From contig CP121690.1 of assembly GCA_038396605.1 (NCBI GenBank), positions 1,520,500-1,584,499 on the forward strand: a stretch of DNA of 64,000 nucleotides. Reading direction: 5' to 3'. This DNA is from Eubacteriales bacterium mix99. GTDB lineage: Bacteria > Bacillota > Clostridia > Caldicoprobacterales > DTU083. The notes under the pieces were generated by a model, which made no database searches, was not told where the DNA came from, and saw nothing but the letters and a program-made list of their open reading frames with translations. Made by a program: the position numbers and the translations under genes. Below, piece by piece: positions 627-64,000 of this stretch (within the stretch, counting starts at the first letter, position 1; every line of letters starts with the position of its first letter).

Positions 627-739
627 AGGCGCTCCTTTCACAATCATCGAATGAGAATTTATCGACTGTTGGGGGCCGCCTTCCGGACCTTGGGATACAA
701 ACACACAGGTCCCCCGTTGACATGCACCCGAAAAGCCTT

Positions 740-746
740 GATTTAT
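740..746. repeat. Target-site duplication of left IS1182 copy (left arm)
   Basis: GATTTAT directly abuts the inverted repeat and recurs at 4036-4042 on the other side of the element. Confidence 0.85.
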
Positions 747-872
747 AAGGGCACTGAAAAATCCCTGGTTTTTAAAACCGAGGATTTTTTGGTGTATAAA
801 TATTCGAATAAACATCAGAGAAATTAATACAAAAAACGAGTATCACCGAGGAAACCAAAAAAACAGCCATAA

Positions 873-1462
873 TCAGGCCGGATTTGGATCCATTAACTTG
901 ACTATCCGCTTTACATTAACCACAAAAGCCGTAAAATATGTTTGCAATCGCATAGAGGCAAGACCCACGGAATCGGCTCTGCCGAGGCCGTGGGTCACTT
1001 TCATCTCCCCGTTCTTTTCTTCAATTCTATGCCGGACTTTCATTCGCTCCCGGAAAGCGTCGCTGTTTTCAAACGAAAGTCTTTGTCGGTTCTTCTCGCT
1101 TGGCTGCGTAATGTTGTAGCATTTTCCCTTTGATTTCCCCATACGGCACTGCCCACACATCGGGCATTTCTGGCACTTTTTTTTACTGAAAAAATAGTTC
1201 AGATATGTGTTCCCGTTTTCTGCTGTCCTTTTCTCAACCCGCATCGCAAGCTCACCTGCCGGACATTGAAGTAGTCCGGCGTCCTTGTTGAATGAGAATC
1301 CTTCATCAAGCGACGTTGCAGCTGCCGCTGCAACAGCGGAGTTCGTTCTCGCGTAAAGTGTCACGCCCTTTTCTTCGCAAACATCAAGGTTGTCCTTGCT
1401 GACGTAGGCCATATCGCCAATGGCTTCTTTTACAGCTACACCGTTGTTTATGGCTTTTTCAA
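873..1462 (-). pseudogene. IS1182 transposase, 3' part (left copy)
   Basis: This is the C-terminal portion of the IS1182 transposase, including the cysteine cluster KCQKCPMCGQCRMGKSKGK and the C-terminal DDE-domain end (HRIEEKNGEMKVTHGLGRAD). The residues are identical to the intact copy at 61879-63348. The reading frame is cut at TTTTTCAA (1455-1462), the target site of the IS4-family insertion. The remnant could be translated only from an internal ATG and would lack most of the catalytic core. Confidence 0.85.
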
Positions 1463-3049
1463 CTCAAACTTCGCAGTTTGAAAAGAGCGATGAACCTTGA
1501 AAATTCAATGAATCCTGGTAAAGATATAGCATGAGACCCTCGATTTTGGTATAATTGAATTGCTAAAAACAATCATAATCGGAGGCTCATGCTATGAATA
1601 AAAGTATAACACAAACCACCCAGGATGATAAGCAGAATTCATCAACTGTCCAAAGATTTTTCAAAAGATTTCATGTCGCGTCAGCATTAAAAGCAGCCAA
1701 TGCATATAAGGAAAAAGGATTTTCTGTAGCCCGAATCTTCCAGTATCTGTTTTTGTTGGCTTTCTCCAATCGCTCCATGTACATGAATCTTTTGACAGGA
1801 AAGAATGTGCCTGCTTTTGCAAAGGATACTGCCTACCGGTTCATGAGAATGGCACATATAAACTGGATGCGCTTTACGACAATCCTTTCTTGCAGAATCA
1901 TAAAGGATACGGTTGCTCCCCTTACAAGCGATGATCGGGTCAATGCATTGGTGATTGACGACTCCGTATTCGATCGTAATCGCTCCAAAAAGGTGGAGCT
2001 GCTTGCTAAGATATACGATCATGCAAAGCATGTCTATCTCAATGGATTTCGTATGCTCACATTGGGATGGACAGATGGAAACACCTTTCTGCCAGTGAAC
2101 AGTGTTCTCCTGTCCTCTGAAAAAGAGAAAAATCGTATTACGGAGGCAAGCCAAATGGATAAACGTTCCGTTGGATACAAGCGCCGTAAACTTTCCGTGA
2201 CAAAGGGAACGGAAGCAATGCTGGAGCTGTTGAAAACTGCAAAAGCAGCGGCTATTCCGGCGAAGTATGTTCTTTTTGACAGCTGGTTTTCTTCCCCGAA
2301 AACTCTTCATGCCGTAAAGGAAATTGGCTATGATGTAATTGGCATGGTGAAGAAATCCTCTAAAATGCACTTTGTCTATGAAGGAGAAAGCTTATCACTA
2401 CCCGATATTTACATGCGCAACAAAAAACGTCGCGGCAGGTCCCGGTACCTTCTTTCTGTCAGAGTGGATGTTGTTAAGGACGGGAAAGTTATCCCGGCTA
2501 AAGTCGTATATGTCCGCAACAAAAGAAAGAGGAAAGAGTACCTCTGCCTGATATCCACGGATCTGTCCCTGACGGAAGAAGAAATCATCCAGGTTTATGG
2601 AAAACGCTGGGATATCGAAGTCTTTTTTAAGGTCTGCAAAAGCTATTTACGATTAAGCAAAGAATGCAGATCTCTGTCATACGATGCAGTAACTGCTCAT
2701 ACGGCAGTTGTTTTCGCCCGATACATGATGCTCTCCATCGAAAACCGTGAATCACAGGATGAACGGTCTCTGGGTGAACTGTTTTTGTACTTCTCTGATG
2801 AAATGGCTGATATTACATGGATACAAGCATTTCATCTGCTTATGGACACATTCAAGGAAAAGCTATCCGATTATCTTGAATTATCCGAGAAGCAAATTTC
2901 TAGTTTAATGGATGCATTTATGAAAGCCCTTCCCCCAACATTGCTAAGAAGCCTAAAGGCCGCATAAATCAAGAGAATGTTTCTGGTTGATTCCTGCTTC
3001 TTGTTGAATTTTCAAGGTTCATAGCCTATATCCATATGCGAAGTTTGAG
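1463..3049 (+). mobile_element. IS4-family insertion sequence nested inside IS1182
   Basis: Inverted repeats CTCAAACTTCGCA (from 1463) and TGCGAAGTTTGAG (to 3049) bound a 1587-bp element. An 8-bp duplication TTTTTCAA lies at 1455-1462 and 3050-3057. Removing the element and one duplication recreates the sequence of the intact IS1182 copy across the junction, so the endpoints are firm. Confidence 0.9.
1594..2967 (+). CDS. IS4-family DDE transposase
   Basis: This 457-residue transposase cuts and rejoins the element ends. The family's catalytic pattern is visible: an aspartate in VIDDSVFDRN (about residue 122), one in FDSWFSSP (about residue 230), and the Y-R-E-K signature in YGKRWDIEVFFKVCK. 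A good ribosome site (CGGAGG) and a TATAAT-like box (about 1549) precede the ATG. It fills most of the 1587-bp element and looks intact, with no frameshift or internal stop, so it could be active. The IS4 assignment is from the motif layout; the subgroup is not determined. Confidence 0.85.
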   Translation: MNKSITQTTQDDKQNSSTVQRFFKRFHVASALKAANAYKEKGFSVARIFQYLFLLAFSNRSMYMNLLTGKNVPAFAKDTAYRFMRMAHINWMRFTTILSCRIIKDTVAPLTSDDRVNALVIDDSVFDRNRSKKVELLAKIYDHAKHVYLNGFRMLTLGWTDGNTFLPVNSVLLSSEKEKNRITEASQMDKRSVGYKRRKLSVTKGTEAMLELLKTAKAAAIPAKYVLFDSWFSSPKTLHAVKEIGYDVIGMVKKSSKMHFVYEGESLSLPDIYMRNKKRRGRSRYLLSVRVDVVKDGKVIPAKVVYVRNKRKRKEYLCLISTDLSLTEEEIIQVYGKRWDIEVFFKVCKSYLRLSKECRSLSYDAVTAHTAVVFARYMMLSIENRESQDERSLGELFLYFSDEMADITWIQAFHLLMDTFKEKLSDYLELSEKQISSLMDAFMKALPPTLLRSLKAA

Positions 3050-3937
3050 TTTTTCAAGTAAAACCGGCAATTGGGTACAGTCCGGTTCTCCGCCGTGCGT
3101 GACTTTAACCCCTGTTATAATACGTTCTTCGGTCATTGCAAGATGGTTTTTGTACCCGAAAAATGTGCTGGTCGCCGTTTTATGTCCGAAACGGGCATCC
3201 TCATCGGCTTTTGAGCGAATCTCACGTATGCGATCCGTGTCCAACAGTTCCTTTATACGCTCATATAATTCAATTAAACCGGTCTTTTCACTTTGCAGTA
3301 TATCTTCGCCAATATTTTCCAGCAACTGATAAGTATACTGAATCTCGTCCGCCAATTCGGCGGTTTCACTTGGCTTCTCAGGGAACTTTTCCGAAAGCTC
3401 TATCATCTCACGGTATATTTCACGCCGCAGCTGTTTACTCAAATCACGCAATACCTGTGTGACGGTTTTGGGGCGGGCATTTGCCGTAGTATGCGTCGAA
3501 TCCACAATAATCGCTGTGGATTTTATCAGCCCTTTTTCGATTGCTTGGCGTATCATTTCGCGCAACATTTCATCCAGTATATCTTCCGTTATGCGGGTCT
3601 TCCGGAATTTTGTGAGTAAGCTGGGGTCTATCATTTCGGCTTCCGGGTCTAAATTAAGAAAATACTTATACGCCATATCGGTCTGCGCACTGCTGATTAA
3701 CTTCTCGTCTGACAAGTCATACACTTTCTTCAGAAACATCAGCTTGAACATCATTTCGGGTTCTTTAGCCGGACGCCCAAAATTTTCACAATACTGCTTT
3801 CGCAACATTGGGTTCACAAAGCTGAAATCTATGCTTTCTTTGATTTTTCTCAGTATATGTTCTTCTGATACAACAATATCATACAGCCCCTGATAAGGGG
3901 ATAATGACATTTTTATCTGACTATTATCTCGCAGCAC
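3050..3937 (-). pseudogene. IS1182 transposase, 5' part (left copy)
   Basis: This is the N-terminal portion of the left-copy transposase, starting MLRDNSQIKMSLSPYQGL and running to the insertion point after LPVLLEK. It contains the family's N-terminal domain and the first aspartate region (IIVDSTHTTANARPK). It is identical in sequence to the right copy. After the IS4 junction a few foreign codons follow before a stop, giving a truncated product of about 303 residues without the complete catalytic triad. Confidence 0.85.
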
Positions 3938-4041
3938 TTTACTTCCCCCATTGCCTCGTTTCTATGAATAATTATACCATATATGCAAGAAAAAGTCCAA
4001 TTCTCAATCGAGAATCGGACTTTTTCAGTGCCCTTGATTTA

Positions 4042-52084: not shown

Positions 52085-52597
52085 ATGCGATATTTGGGTT
52101 CAAAAGCCAAGGCTATAAATTTCATCCGGGAAACGGTTGAAAAAACGTATGGCGATATGAAGGACGCTACAGTTGCAGATTTGTTCGCTGGAACAGTTGT
52201 TGTAGCAGAAATGTTCAAATTGTATGGCGCGCAAGTAATAACGAATGACTACATGTCCTTTTCGTATGCAAGACAGATAGCAAAAATTAAGTTAAATAAT
52301 GAACCACAATGCGAAATTTCCTATCATGATGCCATTGAAAGACTTAATAATATCAAAGGGGAAAAAGGGTTCTTTTATAAAGAATACACACTTGAAGGGA
52401 CTAAAGAAGGCGTATACCAACGAAATTACTTTTCACCAGAAAATGCTATGCGTATAGATGCCATGCGTAAGTGCATTGAAGAATGGAAGGACAAAAGTAA
52501 AATCGATGAAGATATGTTTTATCTACTGTGTTCTGATCTCGGCAATGCTGTAGCCTGCGTATCGAACATATCCGGCACATATGGGGCTTTTTTAAAA
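52085..52597 (+). pseudogene. D12-class adenine methyltransferase M1, 5' part
   Basis: These 171 codons hold the AdoMet-binding half of a D12-class (alpha) N6-adenine methyltransferase: motif X RYLGSKAKAINFI at the start and motif I VADLFAGTVVVAEMF, with motif II ITNDYMSFSYA. The frame is cut at TTTTAAAA by an IS1595-family element. Joining 52597 directly to 53727 restores a single open frame of 339 residues (…GAFLKK+DDPRKF…) with no extra or missing base. Without its catalytic half this part is inactive. Confidence 0.85.
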
Positions 52598-53718
52598 AAA
52601 TCCCCTAATGCATAGTGTTGCTTGATTACGTTTCAACATCAGTATTAGTAGCATAGAATTCTCTATACCTTAGCAATCTGGGATTTTGAAATCCCAAATT
52701 TATCACACGCTCTACTTTTTCCAACAATTCGGCTGGCGGGTTTGTGACAAACGCAAACAAGTTCAGATATCCTTGTATGTCCTCGCGTTTGAAGCCGCTG
52801 TGAGAATTCAGGAAGTTTTTAAGTATGGCGTGAACGCGGTTGACCGGATTCATAGGGTTCACATTGTCAGGCATCCCTTTTAAGGATTTAGAAGGATGCA
52901 CTACGCTTTTCAGCGAAAGCTTCTTAATCAGGCGGCTGTGCGAGGTGTCGCCGTCATGGATTAAGAGCGACCCTTGTCTGATATGTTCCCCGAATGCCTC
53001 AAATGTCCTCTTTTGCGAAGGTTTGCCCGTGCCCTCCAGCAGAACCACACTGTTTTTCTTGTCTGTGGCAACGCCAATGCAGAGCTGGTTCACAGACAGC
53101 CCTCTCAGCTTGTCGCCGTTGTCCTTCCGCACCATGTCTTCCGCCCGGACGGAATAGAAGGTTTCGTCGAGCCAGATGTCGCCCGACAGGACGACCCCGT
53201 CCTGCACCCCTTCGAGCGTCAAGAAGAGCTTCTGAAGCCAGTATCTGGACGTTCTGAATGCGTTTTTGTTGTTCCAGGAGTCAGCGGTGATGCTTACGTG
53301 GTGGAATAAATTTAAGCAGTAGTCAGTCCATTCGCTGATTGGGATCCGGTGTTCATCGAAAATCGTGCCCGTAGTGGGCAGGAAGGTTTTGCCGCAGATG
53401 CACATATAGCGTTGCACCCCGCTGCGCGTATGGCCGCTCTTCTTAAAGCCTTCCGCCCCGCAGTATGGGCATTTAGCGGGGATGTGGGAATTAATCATCT
53501 CGGCTTCGCAACTATCGGCAACCTTCTGATGGCGGCTTTCGTAGCTGGCAATGTAGCGTCCCTGCAAAAATTTCTGTGTCGCAGTCATGTTTTCAGTCCC
53601 TTCCCATGGCGTTTTCCTGCGTGATTTCGCCCGTTCCATTCTATCCCTCCTGCATTTCCGTATGACGAAAGCATATCATACGAACAACAGAAAAGCAACA
53701 CTATGCATTAGGGGATTT
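52598..53718 (-). mobile_element. IS1595-family insertion sequence in methyltransferase M1
   Basis: The 1121-bp element has inverted repeats (AAATCCCCTAATGCATAGTG at the left, the complement at the right) and an 8-bp duplication TTTTAAAA at 52590-52597 and 53719-53726, the duplication size typical of IS1595. It carries a single transposase gene on the minus strand. Because the site is a T-run/A-run, the exact ends were chosen as the only position giving an identical 8-bp duplication with symmetric repeats. Confidence 0.85.
52626..53639 (-). CDS. IS1595-family (ISXO2-like) transposase
   Basis: The 337-residue protein has an N-terminal zinc ribbon (CPYCGAEGFKKSGHTRSGVQRYMCICGKTF) and an ISXO2-like DDE domain: first aspartate in GDIWLDETFY, second in LLIHDGDTSHS, and the third position region VNRVHAILKNFLNSHSG. 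This layout is specific to IS1595. It looks intact. It is transcribed opposite to the methyltransferase it interrupts. Confidence 0.9.
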   Translation of the reverse strand: MERAKSRRKTPWEGTENMTATQKFLQGRYIASYESRHQKVADSCEAEMINSHIPAKCPYCGAEGFKKSGHTRSGVQRYMCICGKTFLPTTGTIFDEHRIPISEWTDYCLNLFHHVSITADSWNNKNAFRTSRYWLQKLFLTLEGVQDGVVLSGDIWLDETFYSVRAEDMVRKDNGDKLRGLSVNQLCIGVATDKKNSVVLLEGTGKPSQKRTFEAFGEHIRQGSLLIHDGDTSHSRLIKKLSLKSVVHPSKSLKGMPDNVNPMNPVNRVHAILKNFLNSHSGFKREDIQGYLNLFAFVTNPPAELLEKVERVINLGFQNPRLLRYREFYATNTDVET

Positions 53719-53726
53719 TTTTAAAA

Positions 53727-54233
53727 AAAGATGACCCCAGAAAATTTAAACCAATAGAACTTATACCGATAGATTTTATAGATAACGGAAAACAGAATGA
53801 ATGCCATAAGAAAGATATCTTTGAAATCATAGACGATGTTGAAGGGGACATTCTTTACCTAGATCCGCCTTATAATAGCCGCCAGTATCCACCTTATTAT
53901 CATATTCTTGAGACAGTAACAGACTATGACGCTCCACAGATTTATGGAATTACCGGTAGACGCCCTTATCAGGATAAATTATCTCCTTTTTGTATGAAAG
54001 ATAAGGCTTTTTCCGCCTTGCTTGATATTATAAAACGTGCAAAATTCAGACATATTTATGTTAGCTATAATACAGATGGAATTATCGATTATAAAGAATT
54101 TGGAAAAGCCTTAGAACAATTCGCTGATGTAACGTTGTTCTCAAAGCCATTCCGGCGATACAAATCAAACTCCAATGGGAATAATAAGGAAAGTTTAAAG
54201 GAGATTATTATATATGCCGAAAAAAGGACCTGA
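53727..54233 (+). pseudogene. D12-class adenine methyltransferase M1, 3' part
   Basis: This segment carries the catalytic motif IV, DPPYNSRQYPPYYHIL, and the end of the D12-class domain (ISYNTDGIIDYKEFG-like: HIYVSYNTDGIIDYKEF). It has no start of its own near the insertion and continues the frame of 52085-52597 exactly once the IS and one duplication copy are removed. Its end overlaps the start of the second methyltransferase gene by 20 bases, so the original operon was translationally coupled. Confidence 0.85.
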
Positions 54234-55110: not shown

Positions 55111-56100
55111 ATGTCTGAAACATCAGAAGCGAGTCGATCCTACGAAGGTGAAGGCAAATTATTAACTAACTATGGTTGGGTGCAAAACACGTCTAATCTC
55201 TCAACCGTCAGAGATACAGTCGAGCTTGTTAGCGAGGAAGGGATGAACCACAATGCGCTCATGCGTGCAATTAAGTTACAAAGGGAAGCAGACGGAAAGA
55301 GACTGAATAAATGGACTTGGGATGCAAGATGCCGCTGTAAGGCAGTATGCGCAACTGGTATGGTGGAATTAGATCGCCGATTGGAAGGATACAAGCTGAC
55401 TGAACTTGGAAAAGAGTTAATTGCTGCTCCTAAAGCGAACATAACAATCAACGGTAAGCGTGCATTATCGCAGGAAGAGATTGGGATCTTTCAAAAAGGG
55501 TTACTTACTAACCCACCAGTTGTACGGGTTTTGACACTGCTTAATGATAATCGAAAAAGTGGAAAAGGGTCAATGACTAAATATGATGTCGGTGCTGAGC
55601 TTGGCTTTGTTGGCGATATCGGTTTTACACATTATGATGCGGAGTTCGTTGTTGTAAGTAATAAGAGTTTCAATGATATGGAAGGTGATTCGGACAAATG
55701 GGCTAGAACAGTTTTAAGTTGGCTTAAACAGGTCAACTGGGTTGTAGATGGTCCGAAAATAGAATGCTGCGGTAGAAAACTTCCCTCTTTCACAACAACG
55801 CCTGATATTGACAAAGTGCTTCAATATTCAGCAAAATCGTCAACAAAATATATCCCTATTGAAATGTTATGCTCCGATCATCATCCCTTTACACATTTAA
55901 TACAGCGTAGGCGTGCAGCAATCCTTGAACAGTTAGAACATGTACCTTATATGGAAAAATCTAAACTTGTAGATAATATCAATGCACAGAAGATTGAGAT
56001 AGATGAACAGCAGGTAGATTTTGATATCATTAATCTTCAGCAAGCTGGAATTACAATTTTCAAGGAGCAATCATATTATAAGCTTTGTGACAAGATTAAA
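55111..56100 (+). pseudogene. FokI-like type IIS endonuclease, DNA-recognition part
   Basis: These 330 codons match the DNA-recognition half of FokI: NYGWVQNTSNLSTVRDTVELV (FokI: GWVQNPGKF...), NPPVVRVLTLLNDN...MTKYDVGAELGFVGDIGFT (FokI: YPPAIRILTLLEDG..TKFDLGKNLGFSGESGFT) and DSDKWARTVLSWLKQVNWVVDG (FokI: SSDKYARMIGGWLDKLGLV). The frame is cut by an IS66 element at AGATTAAA. If translated across the IS border the product reads only a few more codons. The intact ancestor would have been about 533 residues, near FokI's usual 580. Confidence 0.8.
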
Positions 56101-56107
56101 GTAACCG

Positions 56108-57640
56108 TCAAGCCAAGGGTGACACCTTCCATGGCATAAGGGTTTTAGGATCGACGCCGTTCGGGGCTTGAGTGAAAATCTTCGTGAGATATTCAAACGG
56201 CACAAGCCCGTTTTCTCTGGCGGAAACGATCAGGCTGTAATAAACCGCGCTAGCTCTCGCGCCGTTAGGGGTATTGGAAAACAGCCAGTTTTTGCGTCCC
56301 ATCACAAAGGGACGGATCGAATTTTCAGCGCGGTTGTTGCTGATTTCAAGCCTGCCGTCCAATAAATAAGCTCTGAGATATTTGCGCTGGCTCTGCGCAT
56401 AATAGACCGCCTTGCCCAGCAGGGACTTTGGCAGCGCGCGAAGCGAATCGGCCCATGTGAAAAAAGCCTCCATCATCGGTTTGGAGAGTTGTTCACGCTT
56501 TTCCCGGCGTTCTTCCGGGGACAGCAAAGCAAACTGTTTCTCAAAATGAAACAGCCTGTTACAGTAGGCGATCCCTTTTTGGGCATCGGACGATTCACGT
56601 TTTTCTTTCGGCAGCGTTTGCAGCGCCTCGTCGAACTTTCGGCGCAGATGCGCCCAACAGCCCACAACGGTAATCCGGTCAGGGAGTTTGTGATAGCCGT
56701 CATAACCGTCCGTATGGAGAAAACCCGAAAAATCTTTCAAAAAGGTTTCCGGGTGGGTATACTTTCGGTCCCTTTGGTAGTCATACAGCACAATTTGGTG
56801 TTCCGCCTCGCCGCTTGTCCGGTAAAGCCACATATAACTCTTGCTCCGGGCGGGCTTGCCGTCCTCATGCAGCACTTGGAGGGTGGTTTCGTCTGCGTGA
56901 AGGACCTGATGCTCGCATAGCTGCCGTTTCATCTCTTTGTATATCGGCTCCAGCCAACCTTCACTGGCTTTTACGAGCCAATTCGACATCGTCTGACGGG
57001 AAAGCAGAATGCCGTTTTGTGCCCATTCCCGCTCCTGCCGGTAAAGCGGGCTGCCCATCACAAATTTCTGCACAGCGATGTGGGCGACCGATTCGGGCGA
57101 TGCGAAACCGCCTTTGATGACGGGTTCCGGCATGCTCGCCTTGACGATCGGCACACGGTCGGAAGATTCCTCGCAGTGCCGGCAGGCGTAAATATGCCGT
57201 ACATGGCGGACAAGCACGGCTTTTGCCGGGATGATTTTCAGTTCCTCGCGCACCTCTTCGCCCATCTTGTGCAGAGGACAGCCGCAGTCAGGACAGACAC
57301 GTTTTTCTTCCGGCAGCTCATGCAGGATGACCTCGACGGGCAAATCTTCCGGCAGCTTGTCGGTGGTCAGACGGGTCTTCCGGCGATAATGCGCTTTGAC
57401 TTTAGTGATCTCCGGCTCCGGTGCGGTCAAATCGGCGGTTTCCTCCGCTTCGTTGAATAAGCACAACTGTCCGTTGTCCGTCTGCTCACTGGACGCGCCA
57501 AATCGTTTGTGTCTGGCAAGTCGAAATTGTTCCGTCAGCCACTCTACCTGCTGTTTCAGCTCGGCAATCTGCTCCGCCTGCTTGAGAAAATTCTCATAAA
57601 CATGCAGCGGAATTTCAACTGTTTTCTCTCGCTTTTCCAT
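56108..57640 (-). CDS. tnpC: IS66-family transposase TnpC
   Basis: This 510-residue DDE transposase contains the N-terminal leucine-rich region (EQIAELKQQVEWLTEQFRL), the zinc-ribbon pair CPDCGCPLHKMG...CRHCEES, the catalytic aspartate in HADETTLQVL, the second one in HTDGYDGYHKL, and the C-terminal glutamate region NNRAENSIRPFVMGRKNW. It is the last gene of the element, ending seven bases inside the left inverted repeat. It appears complete. Confidence 0.92.
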   Translation of the reverse strand: MEKREKTVEIPLHVYENFLKQAEQIAELKQQVEWLTEQFRLARHKRFGASSEQTDNGQLCLFNEAEETADLTAPEPEITKVKAHYRRKTRLTTDKLPEDLPVEVILHELPEEKRVCPDCGCPLHKMGEEVREELKIIPAKAVLVRHVRHIYACRHCEESSDRVPIVKASMPEPVIKGGFASPESVAHIAVQKFVMGSPLYRQEREWAQNGILLSRQTMSNWLVKASEGWLEPIYKEMKRQLCEHQVLHADETTLQVLHEDGKPARSKSYMWLYRTSGEAEHQIVLYDYQRDRKYTHPETFLKDFSGFLHTDGYDGYHKLPDRITVVGCWAHLRRKFDEALQTLPKEKRESSDAQKGIAYCNRLFHFEKQFALLSPEERREKREQLSKPMMEAFFTWADSLRALPKSLLGKAVYYAQSQRKYLRAYLLDGRLEISNNRAENSIRPFVMGRKNWLFSNTPNGARASAVYYSLIVSARENGLVPFEYLTKIFTQAPNGVDPKTLMPWKVSPLA

Positions 57641-57704
57641 GCTCTAATTATACCGTAAAAACCGCATGGAATCAAGAAAAATCGGCTTTTTCGCACCCGA
57701 TATT

Positions 57705-58058
57705 TTACGAAATTTTACGTTCGGAAACCTCGCTTCGGCTGAGCTTCTTTGCAAGCCTTGCACTGTCAATCAGACAGGATAATTCTTCGCTGTTCAGCGC
57801 CATTGTCGCTTCTCCATCCGACGACGGCCAACGGAAATGTCCGCGTTCCAGCCGCTTGAAATACAGCCAGAAGCCGTCGCCGTCCCATTCAAGTATTTTT
57901 ATGCGGTCACGGTTTCGGTTGCAGAAAACGAACAGCGCATCGGCGAAAGGGTCCAGAGAAAAGCTCTGCTGCACAAGCGTCATCAGCCCATTGATGGATT
58001 TCCTCATGTCCGTGCATCCGCAGCACAGATACACGGGCTTTTCGTCGAAGCGCATCAC
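57705..58058 (-). CDS. tnpB: IS66 accessory protein TnpB (Orf2)
   Basis: The 117-residue protein has the IS66 Orf2 pattern: VYLCCGCTDMRKSINGLMTLVQQSFSLDPFADALFVFCNRNRDRIKIL and WLYFKRLERGHFRWP. It is needed for transposition in IS66 elements, though its role is not resolved. Its start overlaps the end of tnpA by four bases. Confidence 0.92.
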   Translation of the reverse strand: MMRFDEKPVYLCCGCTDMRKSINGLMTLVQQSFSLDPFADALFVFCNRNRDRIKILEWDGDGFWLYFKRLERGHFRWPSSDGEATMALNSEELSCLIDSARLAKKLSRSEVSERKIS

Positions 58059-58414
58059 AGCGACCTCAGTACGCGGCAGACCTTCGCCAGCAGTTCCAAA
58101 TCCGTCGAAGCAGTTACCTTGATATGACAGCCGCCGATTTCGATGGTCAGTATACTTTCGGCAGCAGCGGCAAGTTTAGGCTCCTCAAGCTGCGTCCATC
58201 CGTTCGGCACAAGCCCACCCTCGCCGCCTTGTTTCTCCAACAGCCCCCTACAGGCAGCTTCCCGTACTTTCTTCTGTCTGTAGTAATAGGTGGCTTTGCT
58301 GATTCCCTTTTCTTCGCAGAATGCGTTTACGGTCTGCCCGCTGGCTATCCGTTCTTTTACCTCTTCACCCCAGCCCGACAGCCGGAACCTCGTCACAATT
58401 TTTTGTGTATCCAC
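58055..58414 (-). CDS. tnpA: IS66 accessory protein TnpA (Orf1)
   Basis: The 119-residue protein begins with a helix-turn-helix (WGEEVKERIASGQTVNAFCEEKGISKATYYYRQKKVRE) and has the beta-strand tail ILTIEIGGCHIKVTASTDLELLAKVCRVL of IS66 Orf1. It is the first gene in the element and overlaps tnpB, so the three genes form one transcript starting in the right-end region. Confidence 0.9.
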   Translation of the reverse strand: MDTQKIVTRFRLSGWGEEVKERIASGQTVNAFCEEKGISKATYYYRQKKVREAACRGLLEKQGGEGGLVPNGWTQLEEPKLAAAAESILTIEIGGCHIKVTASTDLELLAKVCRVLRSL

Positions 58415-58537
58415 TCAATTCACTCCAATTTGCTTCAAAACACTTCTTAGAGCGTTTTGAACTCTTTTGAAGTAAATTGTACCCTTTCTGACGCCTTTCC
58501 TGCAATGTGACGGCCGGGTTGACGGTTACAGATTAAA

Positions 58538-59149
58538 CTGGATAAACCAATTGTAATTGCAGCTAGTGAAGCCAACCGTGTGAATAAAATTGAGAAGAAG
58601 ATAGAAGAAAAGGTGACAAAATATAATGGCACTATACCGTCGCGAATCGTCGGAGACCTTATTCGCTATGGCTATGACGGCAGAAATTCTTCGACCCTAT
58701 TTGAAATGACAGTAAATGATATGTTTAAATTATTGGGATATGAATCTGAGCATCTTGGTGAAGGAAAAGGACGTGTCGCAGATGTAATTTCAAAGTACAG
58801 AAGCCATTTGTATGCGAAATCATACGGACTTATCATCGACGCAAAAGCTTACGAAAAGTACAACTTCCCAGCAAGTGATATCAGAAAGATGAAAGAATAC
58901 ATTTCTTTGCATGGAGAACAACTTCTTGCAGATAGAATTCCAAGACATGCATTTGCTTTTGTAAGCATGGATTTTACTAATGACGAGACTGCATTAAGCG
59001 AAATTGCAAACGATACGGCAGTCAATAGAACATCAATAACAGTTGATACCCTTTTGGAACTTGGGGCTATGGTGGCAACGCAACAAGTGAATATTGCTGA
59101 TATTTATGATTGGTATGTAACAAATAAAAGGTTTTCAATTGCGGTATAG
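58538..59149 (+). pseudogene. FokI-like type IIS endonuclease, cleavage part
   Basis: This is the nuclease half of the same endonuclease (203 codons after the IS66 right end). The FokI cleavage-domain pattern is clear: FEMTVNDMFKLLGYESEHLGEGKGRVADVISKYRSH and YGLIIDAKAYEKYNFPASDIRKMKEYI. The catalytic Asp of RVADV and the D-x-K of IIDAKAY (FokI D450, D467, K469) are conserved with 19 and 2 residue spacing. A GTG at 58580 could start a fragment, but there is no recognition domain to guide it, and toxicity would be uncontrolled. Confidence 0.85.
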
Positions 59150-59190
59150 GCTAAGTTTTGCCTACGTGTTTGGCTGCTTTTAAAAAGTAT

Positions 59191-59220
59191 AAACCACAAA
59201 GTCATCTGGCTTTGTGGTTT
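59191..59220 (+). terminator. Terminator after the endonuclease gene
   Basis: AAACCACAAAG and CTTTGTGGTTT form an 11-bp perfect stem around TCATCTGG, followed by ATTTTAT. It closes the restriction-modification operon. Confidence 0.75.
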
Positions 59221-59368
59221 ATTTTATCTAATAAAATCAAGCATTGGATATAAGTCAAAATGGTAAAGGCATTTTTAAAGAAGATATATCGATTTATGGT
59301 CGTATCCTTGCAAAAAAATATGCGGCGCGTTATGGTGGTATCAGAAATTCAAGAAGGGGGCCGATACT
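59221..59368 (+). pseudogene. Possible 3' remnant of a gene upstream of the CD1845-like gene
   Basis: A plus-strand frame without start reads ALDISQNGKGIFKEDISIYG, then RILAKKYAARYGGIRN, and ends with TGA overlapping the next ATG. It looks like a natural gene end rather than chance, as it stops exactly at the start of the CD1845-like gene. In related elements the relaxase gene precedes this membrane protein, so it may be the tail of a lost relaxase; I cannot confirm the family. Confidence 0.3.
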
Positions 59369-59659
59369 ATGAGGCTGATACTGAAAATACTCGTCGCTCC
59401 GGTCATCGTGGTGCTGACCGTTTTCGTCTGGATCTGTGCGCTGGTGCTCCGCTGTTCGGCCATTGTGTTCGGCCTTGCAGGAACGGTCCTTGGCATCTTC
59501 GGTGTGCTGGCGCTGATCACTCATCAGGTTACAAACGGGATCATCCTACTGGTGATAGCATTTCTCGTCAGTCCATGCGGAATCCCCATGGCGGCGGCGT
59601 GGCTGCTCGGCAAAATACAGGATTTGCGGTATGCGATTCAGGACCGGGTTTACGGCTAA
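59369..59659 (+). CDS. CD1845-like small membrane protein
   Basis: The 96-residue protein has three hydrophobic helices (VAPVIVVLTVFVWICALVL; AIVFGLAGTVLGIFGVLALI; IILLVIAFLVSPCGIPMAA) and the ending WLLGKIQDLRYAIQDRVYG, as in the CD1845-type proteins encoded after the relaxase of CTn elements. A GAAGGGGG ribosome site precedes the ATG. It is core-like in base composition, unlike the AT-rich island before it. The role is unknown. Confidence 0.75.
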   Translation: MRLILKILVAPVIVVLTVFVWICALVLRCSAIVFGLAGTVLGIFGVLALITHQVTNGIILLVIAFLVSPCGIPMAAAWLLGKIQDLRYAIQDRVYG

Positions 59660-59835
59660 AAAGAGTCTAGAAATTAAATGGCGCAGAGTTTTTGGAAAGC
59701 TCCGCGCCATTTTATCAATTGTAAGGAGTCTACGTATTAAACATAATGGGAACTTCAAGATCAACGACTGTAATTCCCGGCTTCTTATCTGTTTTGACCC
59801 ATGGATAATATTCATATCTCAGGAACTTGTCGTCC

Positions 59836-60621
59836 TTATATATCTGCCTGAACTTGACCATCTGTATCGTCATTTTTAATCGTTTTCTCTACATAGTCCA
59901 GCATGCCTTCCAATGCGTCATGGTAGAACATCTCCACATCGTCTGTTTTCTTTGCGATAAAAACATAGCCGACGTCCTCCTTTTTCTTATACACGACAAG
60001 AATCCGTTCGCCCTGCTTATTATCGTAATAGGCATACTTCTCAGCGCCGTCTGTGTATTCAGCGTGATATTTAACTTTGAGTCCTTCCTTTCTTGCCATG
60101 AGGAACAGGACGTATGAGTACAATTCCCGATTGATGGAGTTCGTCTGTGTCCTCGTAAGAAGCAGGATATCATCGCTGTTATTCCTCCGAATGAATTTCT
60201 GTGAGCTCATGAACACCCATTCATTCTGAGGATCTTTTTTACTAGCGTCATTCGTATACACACAGTCAAGAATCTCCGGGAGCTTTACAAAGTACTGCTT
60301 CCACCTGTCATCTTCATCAAATGTCTTCCGATCGATGATTTCTTGCAGCTGCTCGGTTACCGGCCTGTCAACGACAATATCGTCCATCAGCATTTTCAGA
60401 TAATCACGCTTCCCGGTGTTGTCATCTCTCAGAAGTCTCTTGAAGCCATAATCACGATCTGTGTTATCCAAAAAGCTCTGACGTGCCTTTCCCGGAGGCA
60501 ACATATAGCTGTATTTGCCGCCATAGCACAGCAAAGCTCTTCTGAACAGTGCCTTATCTTCAATTTCGCTACGAACACCATCCGTATCAAACGGCAGGGT
60601 GATCTTACCGAGGTAATTCAT
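59836..60621 (-). CDS. Hypothetical protein, C-terminal half of a frameshifted gene
   Basis: The 261-residue frame includes ALFRRALLCYGGKYSYMLPP, RDYGFKRLLRDDNTGKRDYLKMLMDDI, WKQYFVKLPEILDCVYTND and LLLTRTQTNSINRELYSYVLFLMARKEG. I do not recognise a named family, but the segment order feels like the end of a larger nuclease- or ATPase-associated protein of phage-defence type; that is only an impression. The same frame extends upstream without a start through KQYEEQDKDAVVLPEDAQIL to about 60740, so the natural protein began in the preceding gene. Confidence 0.55.
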   Translation of the reverse strand: MNYLGKITLPFDTDGVRSEIEDKALFRRALLCYGGKYSYMLPPGKARQSFLDNTDRDYGFKRLLRDDNTGKRDYLKMLMDDIVVDRPVTEQLQEIIDRKTFDEDDRWKQYFVKLPEILDCVYTNDASKKDPQNEWVFMSSQKFIRRNNSDDILLLTRTQTNSINRELYSYVLFLMARKEGLKVKYHAEYTDGAEKYAYYDNKQGERILVVYKKKEDVGYVFIAKKTDDVEMFYHDALEGMLDYVEKTIKNDDTDGQVQADI

Positions 60622-61472
60622 GAAGGATGCATAATAGCCGCTTTCGCTGTTAACACCGGACAGAATCTGCGCGTCCTCCGGCAGTACAACAGCATCCTTA
60701 TCTTGCTCTTCATACTGTTTAAGTAGTGAGAATCGAAATTTTCAAGAAGCATAACCTCCAGGAATGACGAGAAGGAAAATATGTACAGCGCCAATTGATA
60801 ATCGTTTAAGCGGGCCATTGTCTTGTTTAATGTAGCTTTGACTTCCTGATCGCTATGGAACAGAGTTTTTTTACTGAGCGCCTTTGTAAGCTGCTCACGA
60901 TAAAGTATAATGCTCTGCTCAGCCTCGCGCTTAATATCCTGAACTAAAATATGTTTGTGGTCTTTGTATTTATCGTTGTCCCAATTGAATTTATAGTTGT
61001 TCAGAACATCAGCTAACACATTAAGGTTACCCTTGAGCTTTGCTTCCTCTTTCAATTCTAAGAAGGCAAGTATCTCTTTTTGCGCTTCATGGATAGCGTC
61101 TAGTTTCTTTTCAACCGCCATAATAGCTACTGCCATACAAAGCATAGTTGGATCAAGTGGTATCTGCGTCATTCTAGCAAGACCGCCACCAACGCCACCA
61201 TTGGCTGCTTTAAGATTACCAATAAACTGACCGCCACTTTGAAACATAGTCTTTCCCGCAGTATTAACAAAGTACAGACCACTTTGTCCAGCACCGCTCA
61301 CTGCATAGCTTACAAGCTGTGTTAAGGGTTGGAAAGCTACACCCAATGCAGCTGCTTTCTCAATAGGGAACTTCTGCGTTTCAGTCATATCGATATTCAT
61401 TTTTACAAGCTCTGACGGAGGATAATATTCAACATCCATCATTGCTTGAACAAGTGCGTTTTTATTTTCCAT
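60618..61472 (-). CDS. Hypothetical protein, N-terminal half of a frameshifted gene
   Basis: The 284-residue frame starts behind AGGAGGAACCC with MENKNALVQAMMDVEYYPPS. It contains a glycine-rich segment (GNLKAANGGVGGGLARM), a hydrophobic stretch (LDPTMLCMAVAIMAVEKKLDAI) and a long coiled region. After LEVMLLENFDS the last 35 residues are arginine- and cysteine-rich and unlike the rest, while a neighbouring frame continues sensibly into the next gene. A one-base shift near 60720-60742 probably split one gene of about 540 residues. Function unknown. Confidence 0.55.
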   Translation of the reverse strand: MENKNALVQAMMDVEYYPPSELVKMNIDMTETQKFPIEKAAALGVAFQPLTQLVSYAVSGAGQSGLYFVNTAGKTMFQSGGQFIGNLKAANGGVGGGLARMTQIPLDPTMLCMAVAIMAVEKKLDAIHEAQKEILAFLELKEEAKLKGNLNVLADVLNNYKFNWDNDKYKDHKHILVQDIKREAEQSIILYREQLTKALSKKTLFHSDQEVKATLNKTMARLNDYQLALYIFSFSSFLEVMLLENFDSHYLNSMKSKIRMLLYCRRTRRFCPVLTAKAAIMHPS

Positions 61473-61773
61473 TATGGGTTCCTCCTATATCAAGTCTATA
61501 ACAGCGCTTGCAAATTTCGCGTTTTTCTCTGACATCTATCCTATAGCCTACATCCAATCCGACCACACAACCCCGCCAAATTCAAAAACCATCAATCCTG
61601 TACACTCGCGGAGCCAAAAAAACACAAAAACATCTATCTTGACCACACGCCGAACACCGACATCAATATCGTCCACTCGCGTCCGAAATTGGCCCTCTGG
61701 ACTGATTACCTCAAAGCGATATTTTGGCGGTTTCGGCTCACCGGTTTTTTGCCCTCAAACCCCGAAAGCACCA
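61473..61773. other. Region upstream of the unknown gene, left of IS1182 right copy
   Basis: No convincing gene. The region holds the ribosome site (61480s, complement) of the minus-strand gene and a C/A-rich stretch with short repeats (ACACTCGCGG; CCACTCGCGTCC). A 105-codon plus-strand frame here lacks a ribosome site and runs into the IS, so I leave it out. Confidence 0.35.
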
Positions 61774-61780
61774 GCATTAC
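61774..61780. repeat. Target-site duplication of right IS1182 copy (left arm)
   Basis: GCATTAC directly abuts the inverted repeat AAGGGCACTG and recurs at 63475-63481. Confidence 0.85.
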
Positions 61781-61815
61781 AAGGGCACTGAAAAAGTCCG
61801 ATTCTCGATTGAGAA

Positions 61816-61845
61816 TTGGACTTTTTCTTGCATATATGGTATAAT
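61816..61845 (+). promoter_or_regulatory. Promoter of the IS1182 transposase
   Basis: TTGGAC and TATAAT are separated by 18 bases, 33 bases before the GTG start. The same sequence lies in the left copy on the other strand. Confidence 0.65.
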
Positions 61846-61878
61846 TATTCATAGAAACGAGGCAATGGGGGAAGTAAA

Positions 61879-63348
61879 GTGCTGCGAGATAATAGTCAGA
61901 TAAAAATGTCATTATCCCCTTATCAGGGGCTGTATGATATTGTTGTATCAGAAGAACATATACTGAGAAAAATCAAAGAAAGCATAGATTTCAGCTTTGT
62001 GAACCCAATGTTGCGAAAGCAGTATTGTGAAAATTTTGGGCGTCCGGCTAAAGAACCCGAAATGATGTTCAAGCTGATGTTTCTGAAGAAAGTGTATGAC
62101 TTGTCAGACGAGAAGTTAATCAGCAGTGCGCAGACCGATATGGCGTATAAGTATTTTCTTAATTTAGACCCGGAAGCCGAAATGATAGACCCCAGCTTAC
62201 TCACAAAATTCCGGAAGACCCGCATAACGGAAGATATACTGGATGAAATGTTGCGCGAAATGATACGCCAAGCAATCGAAAAAGGGCTGATAAAATCCAC
62301 AGCGATTATTGTGGATTCGACGCATACTACGGCAAATGCCCGCCCCAAAACCGTCACACAGGTATTGCGTGATTTGAGTAAACAGCTGCGGCGTGAAATA
62401 TACCGTGAGATGATAGAGCTTTCGGAAAAGTTCCCTGAGAAGCCAAGTGAAACCGCCGAATTGGCGGACGAGATTCAGTATACTTATCAGTTGCTGGAAA
62501 ATATTGGCGAAGATATACTGCAAAGTGAAAAGACCGGTTTAATTGAATTATATGAGCGTATAAAGGAACTGTTGGACACGGATCGCATACGTGAGATTCG
62601 CTCAAAAGCCGATGAGGATGCCCGTTTCGGACATAAAACGGCGACCAGCACATTTTTCGGGTACAAAAACCATCTTGCAATGACCGAAGAACGTATTATA
62701 ACAGGGGTTAAAGTCACGCACGGCGGAGAACCGGACTGTACCCAATTGCCGGTTTTACTTGAAAAAGCCATAAACAACGGTGTAGCTGTAAAAGAAGCCA
62801 TTGGCGATATGGCCTACGTCAGCAAGGACAACCTTGATGTTTGCGAAGAAAAGGGCGTGACACTTTACGCGAGAACGAACTCCGCTGTTGCAGCGGCAGC
62901 TGCAACGTCGCTTGATGAAGGATTCTCATTCAACAAGGACGCCGGACTACTTCAATGTCCGGCAGGTGAGCTTGCGATGCGGGTTGAGAAAAGGACAGCA
63001 GAAAACGGGAACACATATCTGAACTATTTTTTCAGTAAAAAAAAGTGCCAGAAATGCCCGATGTGTGGGCAGTGCCGTATGGGGAAATCAAAGGGAAAAT
63101 GCTACAACATTACGCAGCCAAGCGAGAAGAACCGACAAAGACTTTCGTTTGAAAACAGCGACGCTTTCCGGGAGCGAATGAAAGTCCGGCATAGAATTGA
63201 AGAAAAGAACGGGGAGATGAAAGTGACCCACGGCCTCGGCAGAGCCGATTCCGTGGGTCTTGCCTCTATGCGATTGCAAACATATTTTACGGCTTTTGTG
63301 GTTAATGTAAAGCGGATAGTCAAGTTAATGGATCCAAATCCGGCCTGA
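61879..63348 (+). CDS. IS1182-family transposase (intact)
   Basis: The 489-residue transposase starts at GTG behind GGGGGAAG (MLRDNSQIKMSLSPYQGL; an ATG nine codons later is possible). It has the IS1182 N-terminal domain (FGRPAKEPEMMFKLMFLKKVYDLSDEKLI), catalytic aspartate regions IIVDSTHTTANARPK and AIGDMAYVSKDNL, a cysteine cluster KCQKCPMCGQCRMGK and the C-terminal glutamate region RHRIEEKNGEMKVTHGLGRA. It is probably active, since both copies are still identical and target duplications are perfect. Confidence 0.93.
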   Translation: MLRDNSQIKMSLSPYQGLYDIVVSEEHILRKIKESIDFSFVNPMLRKQYCENFGRPAKEPEMMFKLMFLKKVYDLSDEKLISSAQTDMAYKYFLNLDPEAEMIDPSLLTKFRKTRITEDILDEMLREMIRQAIEKGLIKSTAIIVDSTHTTANARPKTVTQVLRDLSKQLRREIYREMIELSEKFPEKPSETAELADEIQYTYQLLENIGEDILQSEKTGLIELYERIKELLDTDRIREIRSKADEDARFGHKTATSTFFGYKNHLAMTEERIITGVKVTHGGEPDCTQLPVLLEKAINNGVAVKEAIGDMAYVSKDNLDVCEEKGVTLYARTNSAVAAAAATSLDEGFSFNKDAGLLQCPAGELAMRVEKRTAENGNTYLNYFFSKKKCQKCPMCGQCRMGKSKGKCYNITQPSEKNRQRLSFENSDAFRERMKVRHRIEEKNGEMKVTHGLGRADSVGLASMRLQTYFTAFVVNVKRIVKLMDPNPA

Positions 63349-63481
63349 TTATGGCTGTTTTTTTGGTTTCCTCGGTGATACTCGTTTTTTGTATTAATTT
63401 CTCTGATGTTTATTCGAATATTTATACACCAAAAAATCCTCGGTTTTAAAAACCAGGGATTTTTCAGTGCCCTTGCATTAC

Positions 63482-63826
63482 CGGGCTTTTCGCACACCCA
63501 TCAGTTTACCCTAGACATCAATACCACGCACTCAACGTGCTCAGTTTGTAGAGACATGTCCGCCATTCTATAGAATTGATTATTCTTATATCCGTTCTCA
63601 TAAGTTGCCCATTATTGCTATTGTTTACACTGAACCGTAAACTTTATGATAGCTTATTTCTATTCGGCAAATTATTACATATATTATAGCAGATTAAATA
63701 ACAATTTGTAAGGTGTCCACATGCCTGTGCCTTAAAAAGAAATATTCGAGATTAGCTGGTCATTTCCTGCATGTTTTTCAGGAAGCTCTTTATAGCTTCC
63801 TTTTTATTTTATAGGGAGGAGTGTTT
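63482..63826. other. AT-rich region upstream of the relaxase gene
   Basis: No gene is visible. A hairpin AGGAAGC/GCTTCCT followed by TTTTTATTTT lies at 63779-63810 and could terminate incoming transcripts just ahead of the relaxase ribosome site AGGGAGGA. The transfer origin may lie in this stretch or before mobC, but no convincing nick-site repeat could be identified by eye. Confidence 0.45.
63779..63810 (+). terminator. Hairpin with T-run before the relaxase gene
   Basis: AGGAAGC and GCTTCCT pair across an eight-base loop and are followed by a long T-rich run. Confidence 0.65.
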
Positions 63827-64000
63827 ATGGCAACAACGCGGCTGATGCCGCTGCATACCGGCAAGGGCCGGAACGTCGGAACAGCAATTAGCGACATCAT
63901 CGACTATGCAGAGAATCCGGAGAAAACGGATTACGGCAGGCTCATCACCGGCCACGAATGCGACAGCCGCACAGCCGACGCCGAGTTCCTTTTTTCCAAA
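63827..64000 (+). CDS. Relaxase (MobA/VirD2-like), start only
   Basis: The first 58 residues are visible: MATTRLMPLHTGKGRNVGTA, then SDIIDYAENPEKTDYGRLIT and GHECDSRTADAEFLFSK. This is the start of the relaxases encoded after mobC in CTn elements, with the N-terminal strand and the segment (DYAENPEKT) that precedes the catalytic tyrosine region. The gene continues beyond the window. GGGAGGA six bases before the ATG is a good ribosome site. It would nick the transfer origin with MobC, and it is probably the working relaxase of the element because the one at 5263-6654 is broken. Confidence 0.85.
   Translation, partial: MATTRLMPLHTGKGRNVGTAISDIIDYAENPEKTDYGRLITGHECDSRTADAEFLFSK

What the first reader, a model, noticed from the sequence alone, without database searches (positions are those of the whole stretch)
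59836..61472. Unrecognised large gene, probably frameshifted, beside the restriction island
Two overlapping minus-strand frames read as one protein of about 540 residues once a one-base shift near 60720-60742 is allowed. I recognise no family. The neighbourhood (restriction system, mobile element cargo) and a C-terminal region that resembles nuclease-associated proteins make a defence role possible, but this is an impression only.
Basis: partly seen in the sequence, partly recalled or inferred. Interest (0 to 1): 0.6.

Follow-up and report, generated by a model that had tools for sequence, protein, structure and literature searches.

The report
Two broken genes joined end-to-end
What looked like one unknown frameshifted gene is the front two-thirds of one gene joined by a rearrangement to the back third of an unrelated restriction-type gene, so it is most likely dead wreckage in a decaying defence island.

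Summary
The two overlapping minus-strand frames are real, but they are not one gene split by a one-base shift. The first frame (61472 to about 60712) is the first ~253 residues of an unnamed family whose intact members run 385-410 aa. The second (about 60711 to 59836) is the last ~290 residues of a GmrSD-type (DUF262) protein whose intact relatives run ~690-745 aa. A three-way alignment puts the join at 60711 (range 60698-60714). Identity to a close relative of the first gene falls there from 94% to 28%, and identity to a relative of the second rises from 28% to 69%. Neither missing part was found in the genome. The same join occurs in a second assembly (MAG UBA5454, 99.96% over 2.4 kb), so it is not a read error. 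The neighbouring FokI-like restriction gene is also broken, by an IS66 element with an 8-bp target duplication. Best reading: a chimeric pseudogene made by deletion or rearrangement. The only lead is the unnamed family, carried by phages and found beside restriction and BREX genes.

The parts
60712..61472 (-). Remnant A: first ~253 codons of an unnamed 385-410 aa protein family, truncated (intact relatives have ~140 more residues)
   Evidence: 93% identical to L017 over 214 shared codons (200 of 214), 47/30/31% to three intact relatives; relatives aligned
60698..60714 (-). Fusion junction (best single position 60711)
   Evidence: Three-way comparison L017 / window / L020; same join in G009:C80
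59836..60711 (-). Remnant B: last ~290 residues of a GmrSD_N/DUF262 protein; the N-terminal ~460 residues, including the GmrSD_N domain, are missing
   Evidence: 37% and 33% identity to C-terminal parts of annotated DUF262 proteins; aligned to P0006 and P0007; tblastn of the full relatives hits the window only from residue ~520 on
60618..61472 (-). Open frame 1 as listed: remnant A plus about 31 foreign residues read out of frame
61481..61486 (-). AGGAGG ribosome-binding-like site before the start of remnant A (remnant A may still be translated)
   Evidence: sequence
61781..63474 (+). IS1182-like element just upstream of remnant A (transposase 61879-63348; 7-bp flanking repeat GCATTAC)
56101..58529 (-). 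IS66 element inside the FokI-like restriction gene; 8-bp target duplication AGATTAAA at 56093-56100 and 58530-58537
55111..56139 (+). FokI-like restriction gene, 5' part (recognition domains); the reading frame runs on into the IS66 end
   Evidence: Pfam FokI_dom_2 E=2e-15
58580..59149 (+). FokI-like restriction gene, 3' part (cleavage domain)
   Evidence: Pfam FokI_cleav_dom E=1e-11

Best explanation
The feature is a chimeric pseudogene. A rearrangement, most simply a deletion between two genes lying in the same orientation on a mobile defence-type island, joined codon ~253 of gene A (an unnamed phage- and island-borne family) to about codon 460 of gene B (a GmrSD/DUF262 protein of the kind found as the second gene of a tandem DUF262 pair). 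The join is out of frame, so two partly overlapping frames appear. Shown: the identity of both halves, the join, the absence of the missing parts, and the presence of the same join in a second genome. Inferred: that the event was a deletion, that the ancestral genes were neighbours, and that neither remnant works. Gene B lacks the GmrSD_N domain that carries the QR, DGQQR and FxxxN motifs; gene A lacks its last ~140 residues. The island piece was later passed between members of different genera of one family (inferred), and IS insertions broke the neighbouring restriction system.
For: Remnant A matches only gene-A relatives, all without GmrSD sequence, and the match stops at residue ~258. Remnant B matches only the C-terminal thirds of DUF262 proteins. 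The breakpoint is sharp: 94% to 28% against L017, 28% to 69% against L020. The A5 profile finds one place in the genome, matching only model positions 8-274 of 396. The single GmrSD_N hit in the genome is a complete, different 594-aa gene 1.26 Mb away. The same junction is in MAG UBA5454, a different genus, whose other DNA hardly matches the window. The adjacent FokI-like gene is split by IS66 with a target duplication.
Against: Remnant A keeps a good ribosome-binding site and start codon and differs from L017 mostly at silent sites (pN/pS 0.23, 33 changes), so it has not visibly decayed since the split; a truncated product could be made. Remnant B and L020 also differ mostly at silent sites. 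No genome with the two genes adjacent and intact was found, so the deletion is not shown directly. Only two assemblies carry the join.
Confidence: 0.93

Rival explanations
1. One gene of ~540 aa carrying a recent frameshift or a sequencing error.
For: Two overlapping frames in the right order and orientation.
Against: No relative spans both halves: relatives of each half continue into their own unrelated sequence at the join. The same sequence is in a second assembly.
Confidence: 0.02
2. A functional hybrid made by programmed -1 frameshifting at C_TTA_AAC, just before the join (about 60721-60728).
For: The heptamer C TTA AAC stands in the right phase to move from frame 1 to frame 2 (sequence).
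Against: The same TACTTAAACAG is present in intact L017, where the -1 frame is interrupted by stops, so it was inherited rather than evolved for the fusion. The heptamer is not the canonical X XXY YYZ. The GmrSD_N domain is missing, so the product would be a fusion of two truncated proteins. No known RNA family is found here.
Confidence: 0.02
3. Remnant B is a standalone gene, a C-terminal-only relative of DUF262 proteins kept by selection; L020 also has only this part (330 aa).
For: L020:5626-6618 is 78% identical and also lacks the N-terminal domain; differences are mostly silent (pS 0.86, pN 0.12).
Against: The two fragments start at different points, with unrelated DNA upstream in each (L020: a marR-MATE locus; no clear ribosome site). 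The other relatives examined are full-length DUF262 proteins. Selection before truncation explains the silent bias equally well.
Confidence: 0.06
4. Remnant A alone, as a truncated 284-aa protein, still works (for example as a dominant-negative or as a short form of the family).
For: Intact ribosome-binding site and no internal stop; the helical core predicted with fair confidence in the relative L018 (roughly residues 161-256) lies within the retained part.
Against: Loses ~140 residues with positions conserved across relatives and gains about 31 foreign ones.
Confidence: 0.06

Closest known systems
GmrSD / DUF262 (PF03235) type IV restriction-like proteins, second gene of tandem DUF262 pairs such as WP_079466116.1 and WP_134211892.1
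   Same: Remnant B aligns to their last ~240-290 residues, with blocks such as LFxRxLLxxG, SFL, DRD, KRL, WxxYF, ILLL and YSY conserved
   Different: The GmrSD_N domain with the QR, DGQQR and FxxxN motifs is absent; the frame begins inside an unrelated gene
Unnamed 385-410 aa family (hypothetical proteins; distant members AUV56561.1 of Faecalibacterium phage FP_oengus and WP_121614390.1)
   Same: Remnant A aligns over residues 1-~253, 93% to L017 and about 30-47% to others
   Different: C-terminal ~140 residues lost
FokI-type IIS restriction system (neighbour, not part of the feature)
   Same: FokI recognition and cleavage domains either side of IS66
   Different: Gene interrupted by IS66; one methylase gene interrupted by an IS1595-type element

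Membership tests
GmrSD (PF03235 / DUF262) | GmrSD_N (ParB/Srx-like) domain with the DGQQR motif (PMC4619093) | tested here: not met
   Pfam scan of P0001 finds no GmrSD_N; tblastn of full relatives finds only the C-terminal part in the window; the genome's only GmrSD_N is a different complete gene elsewhere
GmrSD (PF03235 / DUF262) | GmrD (DUF1524, HNH) nuclease domain, present in classical GmrSD | tested here: not met
   No match in P0001; the closest full-length relatives also show no DUF1524 match
GmrSD-type protein, C-terminal region of the tandem-pair kind | Sequence similarity to the C-terminal third of annotated relatives | tested here: met
   E=9e-17 and 1e-11 to DUF262 proteins; invariant columns. 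So: a remnant of a member, not a working member
Unnamed 385-410 aa phage/island family | Full-length alignment including the C-terminal ~140 residues and terminal FDxENxYI stretch | tested here: not met
   Alignment stops at residue ~253-258
Unnamed 385-410 aa phage/island family | Conserved N-terminal and central region (DPTxLxMA...KKLxxIxExQxEI...NYKxNWDN...YQLALY...SSFLEVMLLENF) | tested here: met
Known anti-phage defence systems (PADLOC) | Match to a PADLOC model | tested here: not met
   No match for either half at E<=1

The most novel reading that the evidence does not exclude
The intact form of remnant A is an unrecognised accessory defence or superinfection-exclusion family of Clostridia-type bacteria and their phages: carried as opposite-strand cargo between phage terminase and portal genes, next to AIPR and type III-like restriction genes, near BREX genes, and once fused to a NUDIX domain beside a PLD-helicase-DUF3427 gene.
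Probability: 0.3. Interest if true: 0.4.

Novelty: new member of a known kind. Interest (0 to 1): 0.14.

Why it matters
It removes a false lead: a supposed new 540-aa defence gene is two gene remnants fused, and annotating it as one frameshifted protein would create a spurious family. The useful by-product is an unnamed protein family, recurrent in phages and in some defence neighbourhoods, that can be tested using its intact members elsewhere.

Tried and rejected
Pfam, NCBIfam, PHROGs and PADLOC scans of both halves gave no reliable match; the weak Phage_hub_GP28 and MnuA hits are below cut-off. PDB sequence search with both profiles: nothing significant. The structure model of an intact remnant-A relative had mean pLDDT 45 from four sequences, so no fold search was run on it. 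Rfam: nothing at 58400-64000. The search for a B relative in viral contigs found none; in genome contigs only UBA5454 and L020. The idea of programmed frameshifting was dropped because the heptamer is inherited from gene A.

Full report
OBSERVATION. The whole 1637-base stretch is single-copy in its genome of 3.13 Mb.

TWO UNRELATED HALVES. A search of 148 related genomes with the second half found only the genome itself and one other (G009); the first half found these two and three more, in which the match stops at query residue 258-262 while the host frame goes on to 391-417 aa. Those relatives (L012, L013, L008) are intact proteins of 390-407 aa without any GmrSD sequence. The second half matches, in plasmid records, only the C-terminal parts of annotated DUF262 proteins; these are 745 and 716 aa, carry Pfam GmrSD_N at their N-terminus, and are the second of two tandem DUF262 genes. 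Remnant B starts at about residue 460 of them.

THE JOIN. Two closer relatives fix the breakpoint. L017 (viral contig) matches the first half at 93% of 214 shared codons and continues past the join as a normal member of family A. L020 (Lachnospiraceae MAG UBA1066) matches the second half at 78%. In the 100 bases before 60711 the window is 94% identical to L017 and 28% to L020; in the 100 bases after it is 28% and 69%. The best single breakpoint is 60711, with near-equal scores from 60714 to 60698. The overlap that suggested a one-base shift is the chance continuation of each frame into the other gene.

NOT AN ERROR. The MAG Firmicutes bacterium UBA5454 (G009, contig DIQU01000024.1) has the same join, 100% identical over 231 bases and 99.96% over 2399 bases. 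This genome is of another genus of the same family, and other parts of the window hardly match it (one search is an empty answer without a positive control), so the piece was either transferred recently or, less likely, misbinned. Its contig begins and ends within a few bases of the IS66 and IS1182 ends seen in the window, which suggests the same flanking insertions (inference).

MISSING PARTS. tblastn of the full DUF262 relatives finds only their C-terminal parts in the window. The one GmrSD_N domain in the genome belongs to a different complete 594-aa gene at 322.6 kb. The profile of family A finds only this truncated copy in the genome. By PMC4619093 the QR, DGQQR and FxxxN motifs of GmrS lie in the domain that is missing, so remnant B is not expected to act as a GmrSD enzyme as that paper describes it.

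SURROUNDINGS. The neighbouring restriction system is real but broken: FokI recognition domains at 55111-56139 and FokI cleavage domain at 58580-59149 flank an IS66 element bounded by an 8-bp duplication AGATTAAA. A D12 methylase (52085-52615) is cut by an IS1595-type element with perfect 18-base terminal repeats. An IS1182-like element stands at 61781-63474. The reading of a decaying island fits.

FUNCTION OF THE PARENTS. Family B: predicted type IV (modification-dependent) restriction, from the family's literature (PMC4619093). Family A has no reliable Pfam, NCBIfam, PHROGs or PADLOC match and no PDB relative (NCBIfam and PADLOC were tried on remnant A only). Ten of 391 genomes of the class carry it, the window's genome included. 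Carriers and neighbours: phage contigs L018 (close to a terminase gene, opposite strand) and L023 (just after DNA polymerase A, same strand), phage FP_oengus between terminase and the portal gene region, opposite strand; beside AIPR and a type III-like restriction pair; a few kb from brxL and pglZ; fused to a NUDIX domain and next to a PLD-ResIII-DUF3427 helicase. Other members sit among ordinary genes or next to transposases. This makes an accessory role in phage-host conflict possible, at about 0.3, and untested.

SELECTION. Remnant A against L017: pN 0.030, pS 0.132. Remnant B against L020: pN 0.12, pS 0.86. Both show past selection as coding sequence; they do not tell whether selection continued after the join.

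VERDICT. Ordinary: a chimeric pseudogene.

Noticed in passing
window 56093-58537: IS66 element inserted in a FokI-like restriction gene with a clean 8-bp target duplication AGATTAAA.
   Followed up: yes
window 52085-54233: D12 adenine methylase split by an IS1595-type element (terminal repeats 52600..53716); a probable 3' piece of the methylase is at 53994-54233.
   Followed up: partly
window 729-4036 and 61781-63474: Two copies of the IS1182-like element in the window in opposite orientation; the first copy is itself interrupted at 1462-3051 by another repeated element.
   Followed up: partly
L040:8426-10057: Member of the unnamed family A fused to an N-terminal NUDIX domain, directly next to a PLD-ResIII-helicase-DUF3427 gene.
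   Followed up: partly
L034:5623-6675 (Faecalibacterium phage FP_oengus, AUV56561.1): Distant family A member encoded on the opposite strand between the terminase and the portal region, a typical position of phage cargo genes.
   Followed up: partly
L020:5626-8421: Another N-terminally truncated DUF262 fragment beside an apparently truncated Eco57I-type methylase, in a different order of genes.
   Followed up: no
L011 (G009:C80): UBA5454 contig has an additional IS (with an IS66-type transposase ORF) inserted at the position of window 59246-59255, absent from the window.
   Followed up: no
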